Source of the DNA: JAUWCW01 sp030609125 [NCBI: Candidatus Rokuibacteriota bacterium]
Lineage (GTDB): Bacteria > JAUVQV01
Assembly (NCBI GenBank): GCA_030609125.1
Contig: JAUWCW010000013.1
Span: 1-17,409, forward strand
Direction of reading: 5' to 3'
Length of the DNA stretch: 17,409 nucleotides
Shown: piece after piece, positions 665-9,963 of the stretch
Position numbering within the stretch: the stretch's first letter is position 1
How the letters are laid out: the number at the start of each line of letters is the position of its first letter
The notes under the pieces: generated by a model
The model's input: the letters and a program-made list of their open reading frames with translations, nothing else
Told to the model about the DNA's origin: nothing
Database searches by the model: none
Position numbers and translations under genes: made by a program

Positions 665-1225
665 ATGCCGCCACTTCGAATCCCCCCGCGCCAGGCCGCG
701 ACGGTTGCCCTCTTTGCGGGCCTGACCGCCGTGGGGGCCTACGTCCGCATTCCGCTGCCCGCCGTGCCGCTGACGCTGCAGACAGCCGCGGTTCTTCTGA
801 GCGGCATTCTCCTCGGTCCACGGATGGGGGCCCTGAGTCAGGCTGTCTACGTCGTCACGGGACTCATCGGCCTGCCTGTTTTCGCGCAGGGGGGAGGGCC
901 GGGCTATGTCCTCAATCCCACGTTTGGATATCTCTGCGGTTTCGCGGGCGGATCCGCCGCCGGCGGACTCGTCGCCGGAAGGTGGCGCCACGCGGGAAGC
1001 CTGCGCCTGCTGACGGCGATGCTCTGCGGCCTGGCTGTGATCTACCTCTTCGGCGGTCTGTACCTCTACTGGAATCTCACCGTCCTGCAGGCGAAGGAGG
1101 TCGGATTCATGCAAGTTGCGAAAATCGGCTGGCTTCTTCCCCTGCCTGCGGATCTGCTGAAAATCTTTCTCCTCCTTCCGCTCATCAGAATACTGAGAGA
1201 GAGGATTCCCGAGCATTACCTATAG
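665..1225 (+). CDS. bioY: BioY, biotin transporter substrate-binding (S) component
   Basis: This 186-residue integral membrane protein captures biotin as the S-component of an ECF transporter; it works with shared EcfA/EcfT partners or alone, and no energising genes are visible nearby. The family signature is clear: AGLTAVGAYVRIPLPAVPLT then LQ near residues 18-39, followed by a glycine-rich LLGPRMGALSQAVYVVTGLI and a GGPGYVLNPTFGYL segment (77-90). The C-terminus PADLLKIFLLLPLI matches the conserved last helix. Length is typical. The ATG at 665 is preceded by GGAGAG as a ribosome binding site. The gene follows tRNA-Thr by 24 bases and ends exactly where a terminal inverted repeat of a MITE-like element begins: the last base of the TAG stop is also the first base of that repeat. 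No BirA-type operator was recognised. Confidence 0.93.
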   Translation: MPPLRIPPRQAATVALFAGLTAVGAYVRIPLPAVPLTLQTAAVLLSGILLGPRMGALSQAVYVVTGLIGLPVFAQGGGPGYVLNPTFGYLCGFAGGSAAGGLVAGRWRHAGSLRLLTAMLCGLAVIYLFGGLYLYWNLTVLQAKEVGFMQVAKIGWLLPLPADLLKIFLLLPLIRILRERIPEHYL

Positions 1226-1246
1226 GGTTCACGCAAGAATAAGTTC
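1225..1246 (+). repeat. Left terminal inverted repeat of the MITE-like element
   Basis: The repeat begins GGGTTCACGCAAGAATAAG at 1225 and pairs with 1382-1403 in inverted orientation (20 of 22). Confidence 0.7.
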
Positions 1247-1381
1247 ACGGAATTTGCGCTCAGATTCGGGTCGTATTTGGTTGATCTGAATGAGCGAAAC
1301 CGCAGGAATAGCAGGGCTCTTTCGAGGATTTTGTGATTGAGGATCGGCCGAAGACGGCCTGGAGATGAGATGCAAAAATGG

Positions 1382-1403
1382 GAAGTTATTCTTGCGTGAG
1401 CCC
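1382..1403 (-). repeat. Right terminal inverted repeat of the MITE-like element
   Basis: Read on the minus strand it starts GGGCTCACGCAAGAATAAC, matching the left repeat except at two positions. Its outer end also forms GAGCCC-CTA-GGGCTC (1398-1412) with flanking sequence. It lies only 17 bases before the start codon of the RseC-family gene. Confidence 0.7.
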
Positions 1404-1420: not shown

Positions 1421-1855
1421 ATGAACATCGAAGAACGGGGAGTTGTTGTAGAGGAGAGGGGCGGTACTGCGCTCGTGCGGGCTTCCGAGAGTTCCCACTG
1501 CTCGGGCTGCGCCGCCGCGGGTTCCTGCCGGGGCGGGGCGGGGAAGGAGCGCGTCGTGGAAGCGCTGAACGGGATCGGGGCCAGGGAGGGGGACGAGGTG
1601 CTGATGGCCGTCCCTTCCGGCGCCCTGTTGAAGGCCTCCTTCCAGGTGTACATGGTGCCCGTCCTGGGTATCCTGGCGGGGGCGGGCGCCGCCCAGGCGG
1701 TGGCAGGTGCGCTGGCGGGGCCTGAGGCGGCCGCAATGGCCGCGGGCGCGGGAGGCCTGACCGGGGCTGTCCTTGCCGTGGCCGGGACGAGGCTCTTCCG
1801 GCGCCGCCATCCCGAAAGCGCCGGCCTTCGGCCTCGCATTACAAGAATTGTCTGA
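1421..1855 (+). CDS. RseC/SoxR-reducing-system family membrane protein
   Basis: This 144-residue protein has the RseC family layout: a short N-terminal beta-rich domain with a cysteine cluster HCSGCAAAGSC (C27, C30, C36; the family often has four cysteines), then two transmembrane segments at roughly 73-95 and 98-125, and a short basic tail. Family members act with Rnf-type electron transport in reducing SoxR, or in envelope-stress signalling through sigma-E. Neither rnf nor rpoE is visible here, so the role in this organism is open. The start ATG has only a weak ribosome binding site (AAGGGC). The upstream region is occupied by the MITE-like element, so its expression may depend on that element or on readthrough from bioY. 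Confidence 0.8.
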   Translation: MNIEERGVVVEERGGTALVRASESSHCSGCAAAGSCRGGAGKERVVEALNGIGAREGDEVLMAVPSGALLKASFQVYMVPVLGILAGAGAAQAVAGALAGPEAAAMAAGAGGLTGAVLAVAGTRLFRRRHPESAGLRPRITRIV

Positions 1856-1878
1856 GAGTAAATAAGCCTTTCCGCGTC

Positions 1879-1907
1879 TTGACTTGATAGTTTGGGCGGG
1901 ATACCAT
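1879..1907 (+). promoter_or_regulatory. Sigma-70 type promoter for the lapA operon
   Basis: TTGACT (1879-1884) and TACCAT (1902-1907) are 17 bases apart. The inferred start near 1914 places the hairpin leader at about +26 and lapA at about +80. Confidence 0.5.
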
Positions 1908-1938
1908 GACGTGTCTGCAGAGGACGTGAGAAAGCCTT

Positions 1939-1976
1939 AGGGTTTGAGAGGAAACAGGTTTTTTCTCACAGACCCT
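1939..1976 (+). promoter_or_regulatory. Hairpin leader element, copy A (upstream of lapA)
   Basis: GGGTTTGAGAG (1940-1950) pairs with CTCACAGACCC (1965-1975) with one G-U pair and one A-A mismatch. The stem extends inward through GAAA with TTTT (1951-1954 with 1961-1964), leaving loop CAGGTT. The 3' arm TTTCTCACAGACCC (1962-1975) is identical to 8279-8292 before the response regulator, where the 5' arm is also nearly the same. It ends 18 bases before the lapA start and lacks a U tract after it, so it is not an intrinsic terminator. Its role is unknown. Confidence 0.55.
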
Positions 1977-1993
1977 TTGACAAGGAGGAAGCG

Positions 1994-2317
1994 ATGGGTG
2001 TTATTCGGTGGCTGTTGATCCTCGCGGTACTTTTTGTTCTCATCATTTTCGGGGTTGAAAACATGGAGGTGGTGAAGCTTCGGTTCTCCATGACGAGTCT
2101 TTTCTCGTACGAAGCGCAGATGCCGCTGTTCTTTGTGGTCGTGATTTCCGTCTTCGGAGGCGCCGCGATGGCGGGGTTCATCGGCCTGGCCGACCACCTG
2201 AGGCTGCACTCCAGGTTGCGCAAGCAGAAGAAGAGCGTCGAGAAGTTGGAAAACGAAGTGAAGAGTCTTAGGAATCTCCCCCTGGAGGAAGAGGAAGAAG
2301 AAGCCCACCGGTTGTGA
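1994..2317 (+). CDS. lapA: LapA-domain protein (lipopolysaccharide assembly protein A, DUF1049)
   Basis: The 107-residue protein has two transmembrane helices, about residues 3-20 and 42-66, separated by a short loop with the family motif GVENMEVVKLRFSM near 16-30. A cytoplasmic coiled coil follows (RLRKQKKSVEKLENEVKSL, about 74-92), then an acidic tail of consecutive glutamates. LapA partners LapB in the inner membrane to control LPS synthesis through FtsH-dependent turnover of LpxC in Enterobacteria; that role is transferred by homology. The ATG has a strong AAGGAGG site at 1982-1988. lapB starts 27 bases downstream, so they form an operon in the usual order. Confidence 0.88.
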   Translation: MGVIRWLLILAVLFVLIIFGVENMEVVKLRFSMTSLFSYEAQMPLFFVVVISVFGGAAMAGFIGLADHLRLHSRLRKQKKSVEKLENEVKSLRNLPLEEEEEEAHRL

Positions 2318-2344
2318 TGTGGGCCGCTCTCTGCGGATTCCGGC

Positions 2345-3517
2345 ATGAATACTGACTTGTTCACCAACCGCTACTCCGTCACAGCGGTGATAGCTCTGCT
2401 CAGTTTCATCCTCGGGTACCTCACGTCCCGCATGGGCAAGGCCCGGGGGGCGCAGACCCCCGAACGGGGAGAGCAGTACTACATCAAGGGTCTGAACTAC
2501 CTCCTCTCCAACGAGACCGACAAGGCCATTGAGGAGTTCATCAGGGTCACCCATCTGGACCCGGATACGATAGAGGCCTACCTGGGGCTGGGTCACCTCT
2601 ACCGTACCAAAGGGGATTTCGACAGGGCAATCAGGCTTCACCGGAGCATCCTGGCCCGTCCCGACCTGAACGACAAGGAGAGGCAGCGCATTCTTCTCGC
2701 CCTCGGCGCCGACTACAAGAGCGCCGGACTGTGGGAGAGAGCGGTCAGTGTTTTCAAGCAGGTGCTGGGGATCAATCCCAACAAGATCGAGGTCTATCAG
2801 GAACTGGCTGCAATATACGAGGAAGAAAGGAACTGGCAGGAGGCCTTCAAGGCGCAGCAGCAGTACGACAAGAGGACCGGATCGAAACAGAAGAACATTC
2901 TCGCTCACCTGCAGACGGAAACGGGCAAGGAGGCGATCGCCCGGGGAGAGCGGGACAAGGCGCACAAGGCCTTCAAGAGCGCCCTTTCTATCGACCCCTC
3001 CTGTCTCGACGCCGCTCTGCACCTGGGGGATTTCTACCTCGAAGAGGGGAAGGCCGGCAAGGCCGTCGAGATATGGGAAGGAATCGTGACACAGGACGCG
3101 CCGTTTGCGTACCTCGCCTACCGGAGACTGGAAAAGGCATACTTCGAACAGAACCGCTACGACGACATCGCCAAGATGCTGGAGAATGTCGTGGCGAAGA
3201 ATCCCGGGAACGTTATGGCCAGGGTGACGCTGGGGGAGTATTACGCCAAACGAGATATGGTGCCCGAGGCCCTGAGGCATCTGCGAGAGGCGCTCAGCAC
3301 CCAGCCGCGCTCGCTCGAAGCGAGGCGGCAGATCAGCCAGATCCTCGTCAGAAATCACATGCAGGAGGAGATGGAGAAAGAGTACTCCGAGGCCGTTGAG
3401 GTTCTGTACGCTCCCTCCGAACCGTATACCTGCACCCGCTGCGGGCTGAAGGCGAAGGACCTCTCCTGGCGATGTCCGCAGTGCAGAGGCTGGGATACAT
3501 TCACGGCGCAGGACTGA
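2345..3517 (+). CDS. lapB: LapB, TPR and rubredoxin-fold lipopolysaccharide assembly protein
   Basis: This protein of 390 residues matches the size of E. coli LapB (389). An N-terminal membrane anchor (about 9-28) is followed by TPR repeats from residue ~40 (for example AIEEFIRVTHLDPDTIEAYL) to ~345. The C-terminus has a rubredoxin-like zinc/iron knuckle with cysteines C363, C366, C377 and C380 (YTCTRCG ... WRCPQC). In E. coli LapB docks the FtsH protease onto LpxC and coordinates LPS assembly at the cytoplasmic face of the inner membrane. Every key element is present. The start ATG has a poor ribosome binding site, so translation may be coupled to lapA. The stop is four bases before the next gene. 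Confidence 0.93.
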   Translation: MNTDLFTNRYSVTAVIALLSFILGYLTSRMGKARGAQTPERGEQYYIKGLNYLLSNETDKAIEEFIRVTHLDPDTIEAYLGLGHLYRTKGDFDRAIRLHRSILARPDLNDKERQRILLALGADYKSAGLWERAVSVFKQVLGINPNKIEVYQELAAIYEEERNWQEAFKAQQQYDKRTGSKQKNILAHLQTETGKEAIARGERDKAHKAFKSALSIDPSCLDAALHLGDFYLEEGKAGKAVEIWEGIVTQDAPFAYLAYRRLEKAYFEQNRYDDIAKMLENVVAKNPGNVMARVTLGEYYAKRDMVPEALRHLREALSTQPRSLEARRQISQILVRNHMQEEMEKEYSEAVEVLYAPSEPYTCTRCGLKAKDLSWRCPQCRGWDTFTAQD

Positions 3518-3521
3518 TTTC

Positions 3522-6500
3522 GTGCCGCACCTGTCCGCCGGCAGGCTCCTCGCCCTGGCGGTCGCTCTCCTGATCGCATCGTCCCCGCACCGTATGGTCC
3601 GCGCCGACGATTCGAGTTTCAGTATGCCTCCGCCCCCGTGGGCTGAGGCGGGTATGGAATTGCTCGACGGCGTCGGGCGGAGAGTCGCGCAGGCCCCCGA
3701 CAGCCGCCGGGTCACGCCTGCCTTTCCCCGCCTCGAGTGGGACCAGTGGGAGGGAATAGAGGCCAGGCTCCTGAGGCAGCCCCTCTCGCGGGAGTCCTGG
3801 ATCGGGCACCCCCTCTCCACCACCCGCAGACCACAGCGGGGCGGGGACCGTTTCCAGTACGCACTGGGTCTTTACCGTTACGGGAAGAAGGAGTACCAGC
3901 AGGCGGCGGAGGCTTTCCTTGAGATGCTGACGCGGTTCGGGTCGTCACCTCTCAGGGACAGGGCCCTGTACTGGCTTGCCGAGAGCCATGCGGGGAGCGG
4001 CCAGTGGGACGAGGCGGACAAGACGTACCGCATCCTTCTCCGGGAAGAGCCGGGGGAGAAACTCCGGGCCACTGTCCTGACCTCCCTGGGCGGGATAGCG
4101 AGGAGAAGGGGAAGCCTGGAGGACGCCCTCGGGTACTACAGACAGTTTCTGGACGACCATCCAAACGCCCCCTCCGCCGCGCTGGTGTCCTTCAATATAG
4201 GCGAAGTTTTCGTCCAGCTTGGGAGATTCGATGCGGCGGCGGAGCAGTTCCGGCGTGTGGCAAGAGAATACCGGGGCTTCTCGAATCCCGGCCTCGCCCT
4301 CTTTCAGTGGGGCGAGGCTCTGAGGATGGGAGGTTCCCGGGAAGAAGCGAGAAAACGATACGGTGAGTATCTGAGGAAATTCCCCGGCGGCCCGTATTCG
4401 GTTGCGGCCCTCTATGGCATCGGCTGGTGCCGCCTGGAAGAAGGAGACTACCGCAGGGCGGGGGAGACGTTTGGAGAACTGCCGGGGGAATACCCGGAGA
4501 GCTTTCTTGCCGACGAGTGCCTTCTGCTTGCGGGATGGTCCTACCTGAGAATGGGGGGGCACGAGGAGTCAAGGGAGGCGCTCCTCACCCTTGTCGAGGA
4601 GTACGGTGCAAGTCCATGGCTGGAGAGGGCCCTTTTCCTTCTGGGGCAGAGCTACTACGAAAGTGAAAACTACGATGCCGCCCTTGTCCACTTCGAGCGG
4701 GCCGCAACGGCGGGAGAGGGGGGCCGGCTGAGGCAGCGCTCGGCCCTCATGACAGCCCTTTCGCTCACCATGACGGGTGCCTTCGATGAGGCGCTGGCCG
4801 TCTTCGAGACAGTCCTGGAAGAGGCAGTCCCGGAAGAGGAGAAGCAGATCCTCCCCTGGGCAGGGTGGGCTGCGTTTCGGGCGGAGGACTTTTCACGTGC
4901 CGCTGAGGCGTTCAAATCTTTCTCTGCCATGGCTCCCACGAAGAAGGGCGCAGCAGAGGCGTACTTCTGGCTGGGAGTATCCCGAACCCGGCAGGGGAGG
5001 CATGCCGATGCGTCCCTCGCCTTTGGCAAGGCGCTGGAAACGCTTCCCGGCGGGCCGAGAGAGAAGGGCGCTCTCTTTCACCTTGGTGATAATTACTACC
5101 GGCAGGAGAACTGGAGGGAGGCGGAAAACAAGTTCCGTCAGATTGTGGAGTCCCCGCAGGAGACGGTCTACCAGGAAAACGCACTGATTCGCCTCGCCGA
5201 CTCTCTTGTCCGTCAGGGCAAGGCGAGCGAGGCCACGGAACTCTACCTCCATTTTCTTCAGAAACCCTCGTGGTCTTCCCAAGGGGGCAAGACGCGCTTC
5301 AATCTCGGGATGACCTATCTGCAGATGGGCGATGCTGACAGCGCCGCACGGGAATTCAATACAGTTCTGGCAATAAGGCCCAGGAGCGACTACGCCGACG
5401 ATGCCCGCTTCCAGCTGGCCCGGGGAATGTACCGTTCCGAGAGGTTCGAGGACGCTGCGGGGATGTTTGCGGATGTGATACGAAAGAGTCCAGAGAGCGA
5501 AATTGCGCCTGTCTCTCAGCTGAGGAGAGCCGACTCGCTCTATCGCCTGAGAAAGCTCCCGGAGGCCCTCGATGCCTACCGCGAGGTCCTGCGCCTGTAT
5601 CCCCGGAGCGACTATGTCTTGGATGCGGAGTACGGCATCAGCCTGGTTACCCTGGCACGGGGGGACTTTGCGAGATTCGCGCGGCTTTCCAGGAAGTTTG
5701 CCTCCCGGTATCCGGAGAACACCCTGGCCCCCAGAGTCCTGGCCCAATTAGGCCGGCAGCTGCTGCTGAAAAAGAGGTATGAAGAGGCGGGGGAGATCTT
5801 CGCGTGGCTTCTGAGAGACTACCCCGGGGGAGAATCCACTCCGCAGGTCGTCATCCAGGCGGCCCTCGCTGATCGAAGCAGGGGGGACCGGATGGAGGCG
5901 GCCGCCAGACTGCGGCAGGAGCTGATCCAGGGCGACGGGCTGCTCGAGGCGGAACGGCGATTTGAACTCGCGAACCTGTACCTGGAGGAGGGGAATTGTG
6001 AAGGAGCGCTGCGGGAATACCGGGATATCCTCAGGAACCGTCCGGAACACCCGTTGGCGCCGTATGCCGTCTTCGACTCGGCGGGATGTCACCTCAGGGG
6101 CGAGAACCCGGCGGCAGCCATGGAGGCGTACCGGCTTCTGGCTGAGAGGTTTGGCGAGTCGCCCTTGCTGCCCGGGACCCAGTACCAGCGCGGAGTGCTG
6201 GCCCTGGAGCAGGGTCGCTACAACGAGGCGGAAGAGGCCTTTCGCAGTATTCAGCCGGGAGCAGGAAGGGAGCTGGAGGGGGGGGCGGCTTTCCAGCTGG
6301 GCAAAACACTCCAGAGGACCGACCGCGCCCCCGGGGCTTACGATGAGTACCTGAGGTCCATGACCATTGCTCCCCAGGGGAAGTTCTCGTTGCGCGCAGC
6401 GTTTCGGGCCGCGGGGATAGCCCGCGGGATGGGCCTGAAAGAGGAGGCGGAAAGGCTCTACCGCCTTGTCATGGCCGGCGAAGACGAGGTCATTGCCGAA

Positions 6501-6563
6501 CTCGCCCGAGAGGAACTCGGGGAGGCAAGGCAAGGTGCTGCGCACGGCGGGAAGGGACGGTAA
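3522..6563 (+). CDS. Large exported TPR-repeat protein (1013 aa), partner of the ExbB/ExbD motor
   Basis: Translation starts at GTG 3522, four bases after lapB stops. The first ~28 residues are a signal peptide (LLALAVALLIASS..., predicted cleavage VRA|DD), so it is periplasmic or attached to the outer membrane. From about residue 110 to the end it consists almost entirely of TPR/Sel1-like helical repeats, with many units of the type ALYWLAESHAGSGQWDEADK and ARFQLARGMYRSERFEDAAG. Such arrays resemble BamD/CpoB-like periplasmic scaffolds. No catalytic domain is recognisable. It sits between lapB and exbB/exbD in one apparent operon, and its most likely role is a protein-interaction scaffold tied to a proton-driven envelope machine. 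That role is inference; the exact orthologue is not recognised. Confidence 0.85.
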   Translation: MPHLSAGRLLALAVALLIASSPHRMVRADDSSFSMPPPPWAEAGMELLDGVGRRVAQAPDSRRVTPAFPRLEWDQWEGIEARLLRQPLSRESWIGHPLSTTRRPQRGGDRFQYALGLYRYGKKEYQQAAEAFLEMLTRFGSSPLRDRALYWLAESHAGSGQWDEADKTYRILLREEPGEKLRATVLTSLGGIARRRGSLEDALGYYRQFLDDHPNAPSAALVSFNIGEVFVQLGRFDAAAEQFRRVAREYRGFSNPGLALFQWGEALRMGGSREEARKRYGEYLRKFPGGPYSVAALYGIGWCRLEEGDYRRAGETFGELPGEYPESFLADECLLLAGWSYLRMGGHEESREALLTLVEEYGASPWLERALFLLGQSYYESENYDAALVHFERAATAGEGGRLRQRSALMTALSLTMTGAFDEALAVFETVLEEAVPEEEKQILPWAGWAAFRAEDFSRAAEAFKSFSAMAPTKKGAAEAYFWLGVSRTRQGRHADASLAFGKALETLPGGPREKGALFHLGDNYYRQENWREAENKFRQIVESPQETVYQENALIRLADSLVRQGKASEATELYLHFLQKPSWSSQGGKTRFNLGMTYLQMGDADSAAREFNTVLAIRPRSDYADDARFQLARGMYRSERFEDAAGMFADVIRKSPESEIAPVSQLRRADSLYRLRKLPEALDAYREVLRLYPRSDYVLDAEYGISLVTLARGDFARFARLSRKFASRYPENTLAPRVLAQLGRQLLLKKRYEEAGEIFAWLLRDYPGGESTPQVVIQAALADRSRGDRMEAAARLRQELIQGDGLLEAERRFELANLYLEEGNCEGALREYRDILRNRPEHPLAPYAVFDSAGCHLRGENPAAAMEAYRLLAERFGESPLLPGTQYQRGVLALEQGRYNEAEEAFRSIQPGAGRELEGGAAFQLGKTLQRTDRAPGAYDEYLRSMTIAPQGKFSLRAAFRAAGIARGMGLKEEAERLYRLVMAGEDEVIAELAREELGEARQGAAHGGKGR

Positions 6564-6625
6564 AGGATGAAAAGGTGCTATCATACGCCCGGGAAAGGCC
6601 GCCCGGCAGGGAGAGAGGAGACGCG

Positions 6626-7247
6626 GTGCTCGAGACAATCAGAAGCGGAGGAGTAATCATGCTGCCCCTCGGGGGTGTGCTCCGTTCTTGCCCTTGCGAT
6701 CATTCTCGAGAGGCTGTGGAACATGCGCAGGGTCAAGGTCATCGCCCCGGATGTTATCGTACAGATAAACCACTGGATCGGGCAGGGTGTGGTGGAGGAG
6801 GCGATGACCCTCTGCCGAAGGGTGAACACACCCATGACGAATGTCGTCATGGCCGGTCTGCAGAGCGCCGGCAGCCCTCGCGCAGAAATCCGACTCACTG
6901 TTGAAGACGCCGGGAGACAGGAAGTTCCGGTGCTGGAGAAGAATCTCAGCTGGCTTGGAATCTGCGCCACCATCTCACCCCTCATCGGCCTGCTGGGGAC
7001 CGTCACGGGAATGATCAAGGTTTTTCGCGTGATCGCCCTTGAGGGACCCGGAAATCCGTTTGCCCTCGCTTCGGGCATCTCGGAGGCGCTTATAACCACC
7101 GCGGCCGGCCTTATCGTTGCGATACCGTCGCTCCTCTTCTATTACTACTTCACGAGCAGGGTGGAAACCCTGGTAAGCGAAATGGAGCATCACTCGCTTC
7201 AACTGGTGGAGGTGCTCGTCGGGCGGCATGCTGAGTGGAAGAAGTGA
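6626..7247 (+). CDS. exbB: ExbB/TolQ/MotA-family proton channel subunit, interrupted by an apparent +1 frameshift
   Basis: The best start is GTG 6626 after the ribosome binding site GAGAGGAG (6611-6620 region). It reads VLETIRSGGVIMLPLG and then leaves frame at a run of five G at 6671-6675. Removing one G joins it to the frame from 6675, giving ...LPLGVCSVLALAIILERLW, which is the normal first transmembrane helix of ExbB. The rest is a canonical channel subunit: LSWLGICATISPLIGLLGTV and SEALITTAAGLIVAIPSLLF are helices 2 and 3. With the correction it is ~206 residues, usual for the family. The 3' part alone can start at GTG 6675 but would lack half of helix 1. A sequencing error in the homopolymer, a real mutation or +1 slippage would all fit. 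exbD follows after one base. Confidence 0.75.
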
Positions 7248-7248
7248 G

Positions 7249-7671
7249 ATGAAGTTTCGCGTCCGCAAGAGGAACAGGGAACCGCAGGTGGTTATGGTCT
7301 CGCTGATAGACGTTGTTCTTCAACTGGTTATCTTTCTCGTTCTCACTTCAACCTTCAAAATCGGAGAAGTTAGCATCGACATCGCTCTGCCTGCCGTGGA
7401 GTCGGCGGCGGCGGCGGTGGAAGACGGGATAACCGTCGAACTGGACGGCAGCGGCAGGATTACCGTCGCGGGCAGGGAAATGAGCAGAGCGGCGCTGAAG
7501 GATCTTTTCAGGATGGAGTCACAGAGGGAGAACGCCCGGAGTGTCGTCATTCGGGCAGACAGCACCGCCAGCCACGGAGAAGTCGTGGCGCTGATTGACC
7601 TGGCCAGAGTCCACGATCTGCGCAGGCTGTCGATAGCCGCCGTTCCCCGGGGCCGCGACAGCTCCAACTAG
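7249..7671 (+). CDS. exbD: ExbD/TolR-family proton channel subunit
   Basis: The 140-residue protein begins at ATG 7249, one base after the exbB stop. An in-frame upstream ATG at 7228 lies inside exbB and is less likely. A basic N-terminus (MKFRVRKRNREP) precedes a single transmembrane helix VSLIDVVLQLVIFLVLTSTF (17-36) that contains the essential proton-carrying aspartate, D21. The periplasmic domain that follows has the TolR/ExbD pattern (ALPAVES..., TVELDGSGRITVAGREM, VVIRADSTASHGEVVALIDL). ExbD forms the rotor with ExbB and couples proton flow to work at the envelope. No TonB or TolA is present in the window, so the output partner is probably encoded elsewhere or is the adjacent TPR protein. 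Confidence 0.92.
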   Translation: MKFRVRKRNREPQVVMVSLIDVVLQLVIFLVLTSTFKIGEVSIDIALPAVESAAAAVEDGITVELDGSGRITVAGREMSRAALKDLFRMESQRENARSVVIRADSTASHGEVVALIDLARVHDLRRLSIAAVPRGRDSSN

Positions 7672-7675
7672 TGCG

Positions 7676-8176
7676 CTAACCCTCTTCTTCACCGCGGGCC
7701 GGAAGGAACGGCTCCATGCTGCGGAGCATTTCGCGACGATGGCTCCCTTCCCAGTAGACCCTCTCGCAACCGGGACAGCAGGAGAAGCTCTTCTGCTGTT
7801 TTCTGACATACTCGGGGACCTTGCCCTCGGCGCTTCCGGGGGGAAGCTCCGCAAGCGGCGTGTTGCAGAGTGAGCATCGGGAGAATGGCCTGGGGCGGCA
7901 GGAGCACCCCAGGAACGAGAAAACCTGGCTCAACTGCTCGTGGAGAGACATCGAGCGGAGGATGACGGCGCCTCTTCCCGCCGAGCGCCCGAGTGACACG
8001 TCCCTGGTGAGAAGGGTCCGCTTTTCCTGCAGCGAGGCGATGAGAAGCGAGTCGTCTGAGGCGTCGCTGCTGTAGGTGACGTCGTAGCCGAAGAGGCGCA
8101 GCCGGCGCGCCAGACTGCCGAGCATGACGTCACAGACAAACCGCGGCGGGCCGGCTCTTTTTTCCTGCGCGTTCAT
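7676..8176 (-). CDS. Mut7-C RNase domain protein (DUF82, PIN-like fold with zinc ribbon)
   Basis: The 166-residue protein starts with the Mut7-C signature FVCDVMLGSLARRLRLFGYD (13-32) and has acidic residues in the positions expected of PIN-like nucleases (D16; D59 in LLTRDVSL). The C-terminal half carries two cysteine pairs, C101/C104 (CSLC) and C134/C137 (CPGC), forming the family's zinc ribbon. The C-terminal EYVRKQQKSFSCCPGCERVYWEGSH segment is highly typical. Homologues are predicted RNases; the natural substrate is not established. It runs convergent to exbD, with only four bases between the stop codons, and diverges from the response regulator gene. Confidence 0.88.
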   Translation of the reverse strand: MNAQEKRAGPPRFVCDVMLGSLARRLRLFGYDVTYSSDASDDSLLIASLQEKRTLLTRDVSLGRSAGRGAVILRSMSLHEQLSQVFSFLGCSCRPRPFSRCSLCNTPLAELPPGSAEGKVPEYVRKQQKSFSCCPGCERVYWEGSHRREMLRSMEPFLPARGEEEG

Positions 8177-8202
8177 TGTGCGGTGGATTTCCAGCGGTTC
8201 TG

Positions 8203-8231
8203 TTGACGGTCCATATCCTTTTGGATAGAGT
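8203..8231 (+). promoter_or_regulatory. Sigma-70 type promoter for the response regulator gene
   Basis: TTGACG (8203-8208) and TAGAGT (8226-8231) are separated by 17 bases. The inferred start near 8238 puts the hairpin leader at about +18. Confidence 0.5.
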
Positions 8232-8254
8232 TTAGCAGACAGTGCAGGTGTTAA

Positions 8255-8292
8255 GGGTTTGTGAAGGGAACAAGCTGATTTCTCACAGACCC
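8255..8292 (+). promoter_or_regulatory. Hairpin leader element, copy B (upstream of the response regulator)
   Basis: GGGTTTGTGA (8255-8264) pairs with TCACAGACCC (8283-8292) over ten consecutive pairs, one of them G-U; further weak pairing of GGGA with TTTC closes inside a bulged A8265. The 3' arm from 8279 is identical for 14 bases to copy A before lapA. Compared with copy A the stem is improved: T8262 pairs with A8285 where copy A has an A-A mismatch. The start codon lies 23 bases downstream, with a GGAGGAAAGGGA ribosome binding region between. There is no U tract. Function unknown. Confidence 0.55.
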
Positions 8293-8315
8293 AGAGGAAG
8301 CAGGAGGAAAGGGAA

Positions 8316-9020
8316 GTGGCGAGAACGATACTGCTTGTCGACGACGACGAGGTGGTGCTGGAGGTGCTGAAGGAAGCGCTTCAGGCGGAGGGGTTCGCCA
8401 CCGTGGAGGCGCAGAACGGTGAAGAGGGTGTGGCCGGGGCGCTGGCCCACAAGCCCGACCTGGTGATCTCCGATATCGTCATGCCCGAAATGGACGGGTG
8501 GGAGCTCTGTCAGACGCTCCGGACTCTTCCGTCGACAAAAGCCATACCTTTTGTCTTTCTGACCTCTCTTGACCAGACACCTGAGAGGGTCCTCGCCGGC
8601 CGTCTCGGTGCCGACGCGTACCTCACCAAGCCCTTCGACCTGTCTCAGCTGGTGGAAAAAGTGCGGGAGCTCGTGGGAAGACTGCAGGGTCGTGAGGATG
8701 TTGTCCAGGGAGGGGAATCGTCGGTCCCCGCTGAAAAGATGGAGAACATCCTGGTCGATACCATCGAGTTTCTCAAGGCCTCGGTGCGAACAGGAGTAGT
8801 ATCCGTTCGCTCCGGCCCCTCCAAGGGCTTGGTTTATCTCGAAAAAGGTCAATTGAAGCACGCCGTCCTCGAGGGCCGCAAGGGCGAGAAGGCGCTTTTC
8901 GCCATGCTCCGTCGTCCCCGGAGCCAGGTGAGCTTCAGTGAGGGTGAGTTCCCGAAGCTGCCGTCCAATTTCAAGCTCACCTGGGATGAGTTCATGACCT
9001 CCCTGACCGACAAGGGCTGA
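8316..9020 (+). CDS. Orphan response regulator: receiver domain plus DUF4388 (PATAN-like) domain
   Basis: This 234-residue protein starts at GTG 8316 behind a strong GGAGGA site. Residues 1-120 are a complete receiver domain: acidic cluster D9-D11, phosphoacceptor D53 (VISDIVMPEMDG), T83 and K105 (YLTKPF). After a short linker, residues ~143-230 resemble DUF4388/PATAN (ILVDTIEFLKASVRTGVVSV ... GLVYLEKGQLKHAVLEGRKGEKALFAML), a domain found in gliding, pilus and developmental regulators such as PatA. It has no DNA-binding output domain, so it probably acts through protein contacts. No histidine kinase is adjacent. The leader carries a hairpin shared with lapA. The deacetylase gene follows by 25 bases and may be cotranscribed. 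Confidence 0.88.
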   Translation: MARTILLVDDDEVVLEVLKEALQAEGFATVEAQNGEEGVAGALAHKPDLVISDIVMPEMDGWELCQTLRTLPSTKAIPFVFLTSLDQTPERVLAGRLGADAYLTKPFDLSQLVEKVRELVGRLQGREDVVQGGESSVPAEKMENILVDTIEFLKASVRTGVVSVRSGPSKGLVYLEKGQLKHAVLEGRKGEKALFAMLRRPRSQVSFSEGEFPKLPSNFKLTWDEFMTSLTDKG

Positions 9021-9045: not shown

Positions 9046-9963
9046 ATGAAAAAGACCGCCCTGATCTACGACGACGTTTTTCTCGGTCACCGCATGCCTG
9101 AGTCCCACCCGGAAACGAGCGACAGGCTGCGGGCCTGCATCGGTGAGATCAGGTCTTCCGGCCTGTGGGAGAAAATCGGGCATGCCCGGCCTGAACGGGC
9201 TGCGGAAGAAGACGTTGCGGCTGTTCACACCCGTGAGTACATGAAGACGGTGAGTTCCCTGGGGTCGGGGTATCTCGACCCCGATACGTACGTCTCCGAA
9301 CAGACACACGAGGCGGCCCTCTACGCCGCGGGCGCAGTGAAGACGGCGGTGACGATGGTGGACGAGGGAAGAGCGGAGCGCGTCTTCTGCGCCGTCAGAC
9401 CCCCGGGCCACCACGCGGAGCGGGACCGGGGGATGGGCTTCTGCATTTTCAACAATGTGGCCATAGGCGCCAGGTATGCCAGAAAAATCGGTTACCATCG
9501 AGTCATGATCGCTGATTTCGACGTTCACCACGGCAACGGGACTCAGGAGATCTTCTACGAGGACGATTCTGTTTTCTACTTCAGCACCCATCAGTTCCCG
9601 CATTACCCCGGCACGGGAAGGGCCTCGGAGAAAGGGGCGGGAGCGGGAGAGGGCTTCACCATGAACATACCGCTTCCCGCGGGCGCTGGTGACACCGAAC
9701 TGGTGGGCGCCTACGAGGAGTCGTTCCGGGACGCTGCGGCCCGCTTCGAACCCGACATCGTACTGGTCTCAGCCGGCTATGATCTTCACCGGGACGACCC
9801 GCTGGCCGGCCTGGAGGTCACCGACAGCGGAGTCGAAAAAGTGGTCTCCTCGATCGTGGAGGCGGCCGGCGGCTCTCCTCTCGTTTTTGCCCTGGAGGGC
9901 GGCTACAATCTCGAGGTCCTCGCCAGATCGGTGAGGAGGACCATCGAGGTGCTGATGGGTTAG
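9046..9963 (+). CDS. Histone deacetylase family protein (AcuC/HdaH-like zinc deacetylase)
   Basis: All hallmarks of class I/II-type zinc deacetylases are present in 305 residues: RPPGHHAERDRGMGFCIFNN (118-137) with the catalytic histidine pair H122/H123, DFDVHHGNGTQEIF (157-170) supplying zinc ligands D159 and H161, D251 in SAGYDLHRDDPLAGL as the third ligand, and LEGGYN near 285 providing the active-site tyrosine. Bacterial members remove acyl groups from lysines (for example acetyl-CoA synthetase) or from polyamines; the substrate cannot be told here. The start ATG has a weak ribosome binding site, 25 bases after the response regulator. The stop is followed at once by a hairpin (9969-9992). 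Confidence 0.92.
   Translation: MKKTALIYDDVFLGHRMPESHPETSDRLRACIGEIRSSGLWEKIGHARPERAAEEDVAAVHTREYMKTVSSLGSGYLDPDTYVSEQTHEAALYAAGAVKTAVTMVDEGRAERVFCAVRPPGHHAERDRGMGFCIFNNVAIGARYARKIGYHRVMIADFDVHHGNGTQEIFYEDDSVFYFSTHQFPHYPGTGRASEKGAGAGEGFTMNIPLPAGAGDTELVGAYEESFRDAAARFEPDIVLVSAGYDLHRDDPLAGLEVTDSGVEKVVSSIVEAAGGSPLVFALEGGYNLEVLARSVRRTIEVLMG

What the first reader, a model, noticed from the sequence alone, without database searches (positions are those of the whole stretch)
1939..8292. A shared hairpin leader before lapA and before an orphan response regulator
The leaders at 1939-1976 and 8255-8292 share an identical 14-base 3' arm, a near-identical 5' arm starting GGGTTTG, and an AACA in or next to the loop. 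Both sit 18-26 bases after a predicted transcription start and 18-23 bases before a start codon. Copy B restores a base pair that is mismatched in copy A, and neither has a U tract. The two genes are unrelated and 6 kb apart, so this looks like a reused 5' UTR regulatory element (RNA-binding protein site, small riboswitch or RNA stabiliser) linking LPS assembly control to a signalling protein. A CsrA site is a possibility because both have GGA near the loop, but in copy A that GGA is in the stem.
Basis: partly seen in the sequence, partly recalled or inferred. Interest (0 to 1): 0.65.

Follow-up and report, generated by a model that had tools for sequence, protein, structure and literature searches.

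The report
Shared leader hairpin on outer-membrane operons
A short hairpin sits just before the ribosome-binding site of at least three separate operons of one uncultured bacterium, two of which build or control lipopolysaccharide, so it may be a common switch for outer-membrane construction, although nobody has tested what it does.

Summary
Hairpins 1940-1975 (A, before lapA-lapB) and 8255-8292 (B, before a receiver-DUF4388 regulator) are identical at 31 of 36 aligned columns. A model built from B alone finds A at E=3e-5 genome-wide, and the likeness stops at the hairpin's ends.

New: that search's next, non-significant match (E=4.3) is a third copy, C (G000:C208:18350-18372, minus strand). 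Its first 20 bases fit the A/B consensus at every position. It keeps the 8-bp closing stem with a shorter loop and starts 48 nt before skp of skp-lpxD-fabZ-lpxA-lpxI-lpxB, the lipid A operon. A weaker candidate, D, lies between tamB and an Omp85 gene. Two of three firm copies thus lead LPS operons.

Best reading: a 5'-leader RNA element acting next to the Shine-Dalgarno site, partner unknown. CsrA is unlikely (no csrA found). A DNA operator is not excluded.

Limits: no compensatory changes; a competing fold beats hairpin A in its predicted leader; no close relatives held; the one same-order genome lacks the element before its regulator and skp; transcription starts are predicted only.

The parts
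1879..1907 (+). predicted sigma-70 promoter of copy A leader (TTGACT-17-TACCAT)
   Evidence: consensus scan; prediction only
1926..1933 (+). GTGAGAAA, complementary to TTTCTCAC (1962-1969) of the copy A 3' arm; a competing pairing, absent from copy B
   Evidence: sequence; in the predicted leader most of these pairs have probability about 0.7, against about 0.27 for the hairpin A pairs
1940..1975 (+). hairpin A; conserved 5' part 1940-1958, 3' arm 1962-1975
1982..1988 (+). Shine-Dalgarno AAGGAGG of lapA, 6 nt after the hairpin
   Evidence: sequence
1994..2317 (+). lapA-like gene (PF06305)
2345..3517 (+). lapB-like gene (TPR + PF18073 Zn_ribbon_LapB), directly after lapA
8203..8231 (+). predicted sigma-70 promoter of copy B leader (TTGACG-17-TAGAGT)
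   Evidence: prediction only
8255..8292 (+). hairpin B; conserved 5' part 8255-8274, 3' arm 8279-8292
8302..8307 (+). Shine-Dalgarno AGGAGG of the regulator gene, 9 nt after the hairpin
   Evidence: sequence
8316..9020 (+). receiver domain (PF00072) + DUF4388 (PF14332) regulator; histone-deacetylase-family gene 9046-9963 follows

Best explanation
A, B and C are copies of one cis-acting RNA element in 5' leaders: a hairpin closed by GGGUUUGU/ACAGRCCC (one A-A mismatch in copy A) whose 5' strand runs on into GAAGGRAACARG, ending 6, 9 and 13 nt upstream of the Shine-Dalgarno sites. I infer that a trans-acting factor (an RNA-binding protein other than CsrA, or a small RNA) recognises the conserved 5' strand or the hairpin and so sets translation or stability of the lapA-lapB mRNA, the skp-lpxD-fabZ-lpxA-lpxI-lpxB mRNA and the regulator mRNA together, which would adjust lipid A output and outer-membrane assembly. 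Shown: three related elements, their position and strand, the genes they precede. Inferred: that they are transcribed as drawn, that these gene rows are operons, that RNA rather than DNA is the active form, the factor and the direction of control.
For: A is found from B at genome-wide E=3e-5. C matches the A/B consensus at every position; in the 759-kb sample (about a third of the genome, both strands) the degenerate 20-mer has exactly 2 matches, B and C (A lacks one base), and none at 1-3 mismatches. In a gapped scan of the same sample A and B are 2 edits from C's 20-mer; one further hit has 3 edits, the other printed ones 4-5 (47 hits, 40 printed; a scrambled word gave 33, best 4 edits). Core similar (p<=0.0005), flanks not (p 0.16-0.92), for each of the three pairs, so not a segmental duplication. 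All three lie on the coding strand. First G to start codon 54, 61, 48 nt; bases between -10 box and element 32, 23, 53, i.e. steadier against the start codon. Pair 4 of the closing stem is U-A in A/B and U-G in C. C alone folds to the 8-bp hairpin (-10.0). Genes after A and C are LPS genes. D, if real, also has GGGUUUGUGA, folds (-12.0) and precedes an Omp85 gene after tamB.
Against: No compensatory double change. Only three firm copies found in a 92%-complete genome; the model searches scored only 5-6 first-look candidates, and R2 missed C. In the predicted leader of A the MFE fold keeps the hairpin, but in the ensemble its pairs have probability about 0.27 and the competing pairing with 1926-1933 mostly about 0.7. 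C lacks most of the 14-base 3' arm. A GTG inside C is in frame with skp, so C could be coding if that start is used, though the ATG at L148:18324 has a good Shine-Dalgarno site. The same-order genome G001 shows no such element before its regulator or its skp. All against all, 7 leader pairs among 536 leaders share a 20-mer with 2 or fewer substitutions, B-C being one of the 7. Of 500 random leader words, 17 have a copy elsewhere in the sample with 2 or fewer substitutions and 6 match exactly when three positions are two-fold (3 of those 6 are words of the dispersed repeat); an earlier set gave 5 of 150. C's significance therefore rests on its fit to a motif that A and B had fixed beforehand and on its place.
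Confidence: 0.5

Rival explanations
1. DNA operator: the 20-bp motif is the binding site of a transcription factor placed shortly downstream of the promoters, and the hairpin is incidental.
For: The motif begins 23-53 bp after the predicted -10 boxes in all three; the 5' 20 bases are shared by all three while the long pairing 3' arm is not; the hairpin is not the favoured fold in the predicted leader of A.
Against: The 20-bp motif is not a clear palindrome; the strand is the same in all three; spacing to the promoter varies more than to the start codon; G-U pairs are kept in A/B and folding is better on the sense strand.
Confidence: 0.25
2. Target site of a base-pairing small RNA encoded elsewhere, which would explain conserved 5' sequence with variable structure.
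For: Sequence rather than 3' structure is shared by A, B and C.
Against: The whole-genome scan found no near-complementary locus other than copies B and C themselves and one 3-mismatch site at C218, probably chance; a 7-9 nt seed would not be detectable this way.
Confidence: 0.1
3. Remnants of a dispersed repeat or of a local duplication, without function.
For: The genome does carry a dispersed intergenic repeat, one copy in this window; A and B lie at or near the ends of a block (RseC to Mut7-C) that is absent between bioY and the regulator in G001.
Against: Similarity ends at the hairpin; three of three copies sit upstream of genes, on the coding strand, at nearly the same distance; C is on another contig.
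Confidence: 0.1
4. CsrA/RsmA-type site with GGA in a hairpin loop plus GGA in the Shine-Dalgarno site.
For: Loop GAAGGAA in C and GGA in all copies.
Against: No CsrA (PF02599) match in the genome while 3 of 14 control genomes ring; GGA is in the stem in A and B; conservation extends far beyond GGA.
Confidence: 0.05

Closest known systems
CsrA/RsmA binding sites in 5' leaders (recalled)
   Same: hairpin just upstream of the Shine-Dalgarno site, GGA in the loop of C
   Different: no csrA found; long shared stem sequence; GGA paired in A and B
E. coli RpoE/Cpx/RpoH control of LPS genes
   Same: overlapping targets: fabZ, lpxA, lpxD and lapAB (passages in PMC8745692 and PMC6358824)
   Different: there control is at promoters; here the shared element lies inside the predicted transcript and no shared -10 motif follows the GGAAAC
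preQ1-I-type very small riboswitches (recalled)
   Same: tiny leader hairpin near the Shine-Dalgarno site
   Different: no shared tail after the hairpin; no Rfam match; no obvious common metabolite
REP/MITE-type intergenic repeats
   Same: short palindromic intergenic copies
   Different: three firm copies only, all in leaders in one orientation

Membership tests
CsrA/RsmA site | genome encodes CsrA | tested here: not met
   PF02599: 0 matches at E<=0.001 in G000; genome 92% complete
CsrA/RsmA site | ANGGA in the hairpin loop (motif recalled) | tested here: not met
   met in C (AAGGA); in A and B GGA lies in the stem and A reads GAGGA
Known Rfam family | match above gathering score | tested here: not met
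   whole window: only FMN riboswitch and tRNA; the three leaders alone at E<=5: 5, 2 and 1 matches, each far below its gathering score
Intrinsic terminator/attenuator | GC stem followed by a T run | tested here: not met
   A and B not among the 10 terminator-like sites listed; followed by TTTGAC and AGAGG
ECF/sigmaE-type promoter (GGAAC -35, recalled) | common -10 about 16 nt downstream | tested here: not met
   no downstream similarity, p=0.16-0.54; by position the start would fall near the start codon
Structured RNA element | compensatory base changes | tested here: inconclusive
   none on both sides in A/B; one-sided U-A to U-G in C
Structured RNA element | present in the transcript | not testable with these tools
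   needs 5'-end mapping
Dispersed repeat (REP/MITE) | many copies regardless of gene context | tested here: not met
   three firm copies, all upstream of genes

The most novel reading that the evidence does not exclude
A dedicated post-transcriptional regulon for outer-membrane construction: one leader hairpin, read by one factor, co-ordinates lipid A synthesis and OMP chaperoning (skp-lpxD-fabZ-lpxA-lpxI-lpxB), LPS quality control (lapA-lapB), possibly barrel insertion (tamB/Omp85), and a receiver-DUF4388 regulator, in a genome where no CsrA was found, where E. coli uses sigma factors and two-component systems. In copy A the two competing folds could themselves be the switch.
Probability: 0.35. 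Interest if true: 0.75.

Novelty: new member of a known kind. Interest (0 to 1): 0.5.

Why it matters
How cells balance LPS with the rest of the envelope is known mostly from E. coli and its kin (general knowledge), where control is by LpxC proteolysis and promoter-level stress responses. A shared leader element on the lipid A operon and on lapAB would be a different wiring of the same need, and it makes a sharp, testable prediction about which mRNAs move together. It also links a regulator of unknown role (receiver-DUF4388) to the envelope.

Tried and rejected
CsrA: rejected on absence of the gene. Further near-identical copies of the 3' arm: 7 hits with up to 1 mismatch, namely A, B and 5 others; the 5 were read (4, the fifth) and none has the 5' arm. 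Copies in other lineages: model R2 over 386 genomes gives only one extra match at E<=0.01 (G266, E 0.0013 per genome, about 0.5 expected over 386), but R2 scores C at only 13.1 bits, so this search cannot see short forms. G001: regulator ortholog follows bioY by a few dozen bases with no leader; lapA not found, lapB only weak TPR matches; skp leader without the element. Skp leaders of eight unrelated genomes were printed and show nothing similar by eye. Plasmid collection with the lapA leader: no match. ECF promoter, terminator, Rfam family: see membership test. C218:1936-1953 (3 mismatches) and L188:11375 (GGGTTTGTGAA after a terminator-like hairpin, no convincing gene) judged chance. Small hairpins in A and B homologous to that of C are far weaker than the long form. 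Papers: searches listed no paper that, by title and start of abstract, describes a leader element of this kind; I saw those listings plus passages of PMC8745692 and PMC6358824, nothing more.

Full report
What is there. The window is contig C128 of a 2.32-Mb, 376-contig, 92%-complete genome. Genes in order: tRNA, bioY, RseC-like, lapA, lapB (TPR with the LapB rubredoxin-type domain), a large TPR protein, ExbB-like, ExbD-like, a Mut7-C ORF on the other strand, receiver-DUF4388 regulator, histone-deacetylase-family gene, and further on an FMN riboswitch. Hairpin A (1940-1975) lies between a promoter-like site and lapA; hairpin B (8255-8292) between a promoter-like site and the regulator gene.

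Is the likeness real? A and B share 31 of 36 aligned columns, including a 14-base 3' arm. A covariance model of B alone finds A with E=3.0e-5 over the genome; the next match has E=4.26. Local alignment of the two hairpins scores 22 against a shuffled mean of 5.4, while 60 bases on either side score no better than shuffles (p=0.92 and 0.54). So the likeness is confined to the element. Hairpin strength alone is not remarkable: A, B and C stand at ranks 36, 39 and 18 against 330 leaders.

A third copy. That E=4.26 match turned out to carry the complete 5' half: GGGTTTGTGAAGGAAACAGG followed by CCC (G000:C208:18350-18372, minus strand). At each position where A and B agree, C agrees; where they differ, C has the letter of one of them. 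Its hairpin is shorter: GGGUUUGU pairs with ACAGGCCC around GAAGGAA (-10.0 kcal/mol), against ACAGACCC in A and B. It has a promoter-like TCGACA-17-TATAAT upstream and ends 25 nt before the ATG of a Skp/OmpH gene, followed by lpxD, fabZ, lpxA, lpxI and lpxB; an Omp85 (bamA-like) gene precedes it. A gapped scan of a third of the genome gives C 0, A 2, B 2 edits, then one hit with 3 edits and the other printed ones with 4-5. Whole-genome pattern scans with substitutions give C, B and one doubtful site; they cannot see A, which lacks one base, nor other gapped copies.

A possible fourth. The 10-mer GGGTTTGTGA occurs 4 times in the 759-kb sample (B, C, and two others); permuted words average 0.68, and 1 of 60 reaches 4. 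One of the two others, D (hairpin L244:3915-3939), overlaps the stop codon of a TamB gene and ends directly before the ATG of an Omp85/POTRA gene; it folds into a 10-pair hairpin with loop GUGA (-12.0). It lacks the GAAGGRAACARG part. The other (L188) has no convincing gene. I treat D as a candidate only.

Controls against my reading. All against all, 7 pairs among 536 leaders share a 20-mer with at most 2 substitutions, B-C being one of the seven. Of 500 random leader words, 17 have a copy elsewhere in the sample at 2 or fewer substitutions, and 6 match exactly when three positions are made two-fold; 3 of those 6 are words of a dispersed repeat of which one search shows 7 copies. An earlier set gave 5 of 150. 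So C's standing rests on matching a motif that A and B had already fixed, and on its place before an LPS operon. The gene caller used for these leader sets is crude, missed the leaders of A and C, and these were added by hand.

RNA or DNA? For RNA: same strand in all three, steadier distance to the start codon (48-61 nt) than to the -10 box (23-53), better folding on the sense strand, G-U pairs kept, U-A to U-G in C. Against: no double compensatory change, and in the predicted leader of A the pairing of 1926-1933 with 1962-1969 (mostly about 0.7) beats the hairpin (about 0.27). In B and C the stems are mostly paired as drawn in their predicted leaders. In E. coli the corresponding genes are tied to stress responses at promoters: RpoH at one of three lapAB promoters, RpoE and Cpx for fabZ, lpxA and lpxD (passages). 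Here the shared sequence is unlikely to be such a promoter, since no shared -10 follows and the start would fall near the start codon.

Evolution. Of the 60 genomes one other (G001) shares the order; the rest share only the domain. Its regulator ortholog (63% identical) follows bioY by a few dozen bases, without a leader; lapA was not found and lapB gave only weak repeat matches; its skp follows another gene and has no such element. The element is therefore young or lost there, and phylogenetic support is lacking. The G001 result does not test A.

Verdict. Observation confirmed and extended from two to three copies with a fourth candidate; interpretation as a shared leader element partly supported; function and partner unknown.

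Noticed in passing
window 1225-1403: Dispersed intergenic repeat between bioY and the RseC-like gene, with inverted ends (GGGTTCACGCAAGAATAA / TTATTCTTGCGTGAGCCC), MITE-like; its inner part has 7 copies in the 759-kb sample including this one.
   Followed up: partly
L244:3915-3939: Candidate fourth element between tamB and an Omp85/POTRA gene: GGGTTTGTGA in a 10-pair hairpin directly before the ATG.
   Followed up: partly
window 1421-8176: The block RseC-lapA-lapB-TPR-ExbB-ExbD-Mut7-C lies between bioY and the regulator here but not in the same-order genome G001, where bioY is directly followed by the regulator.
   Followed up: partly
L148:18366: An in-frame GTG inside element C could serve as an alternative start of skp.
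   Followed up: no
window 1926-1933: GTGAGAAA upstream of hairpin A pairs with its 3' arm in the favoured ensemble fold of leader A, giving two competing folds; copy B has no such segment.
   Followed up: partly
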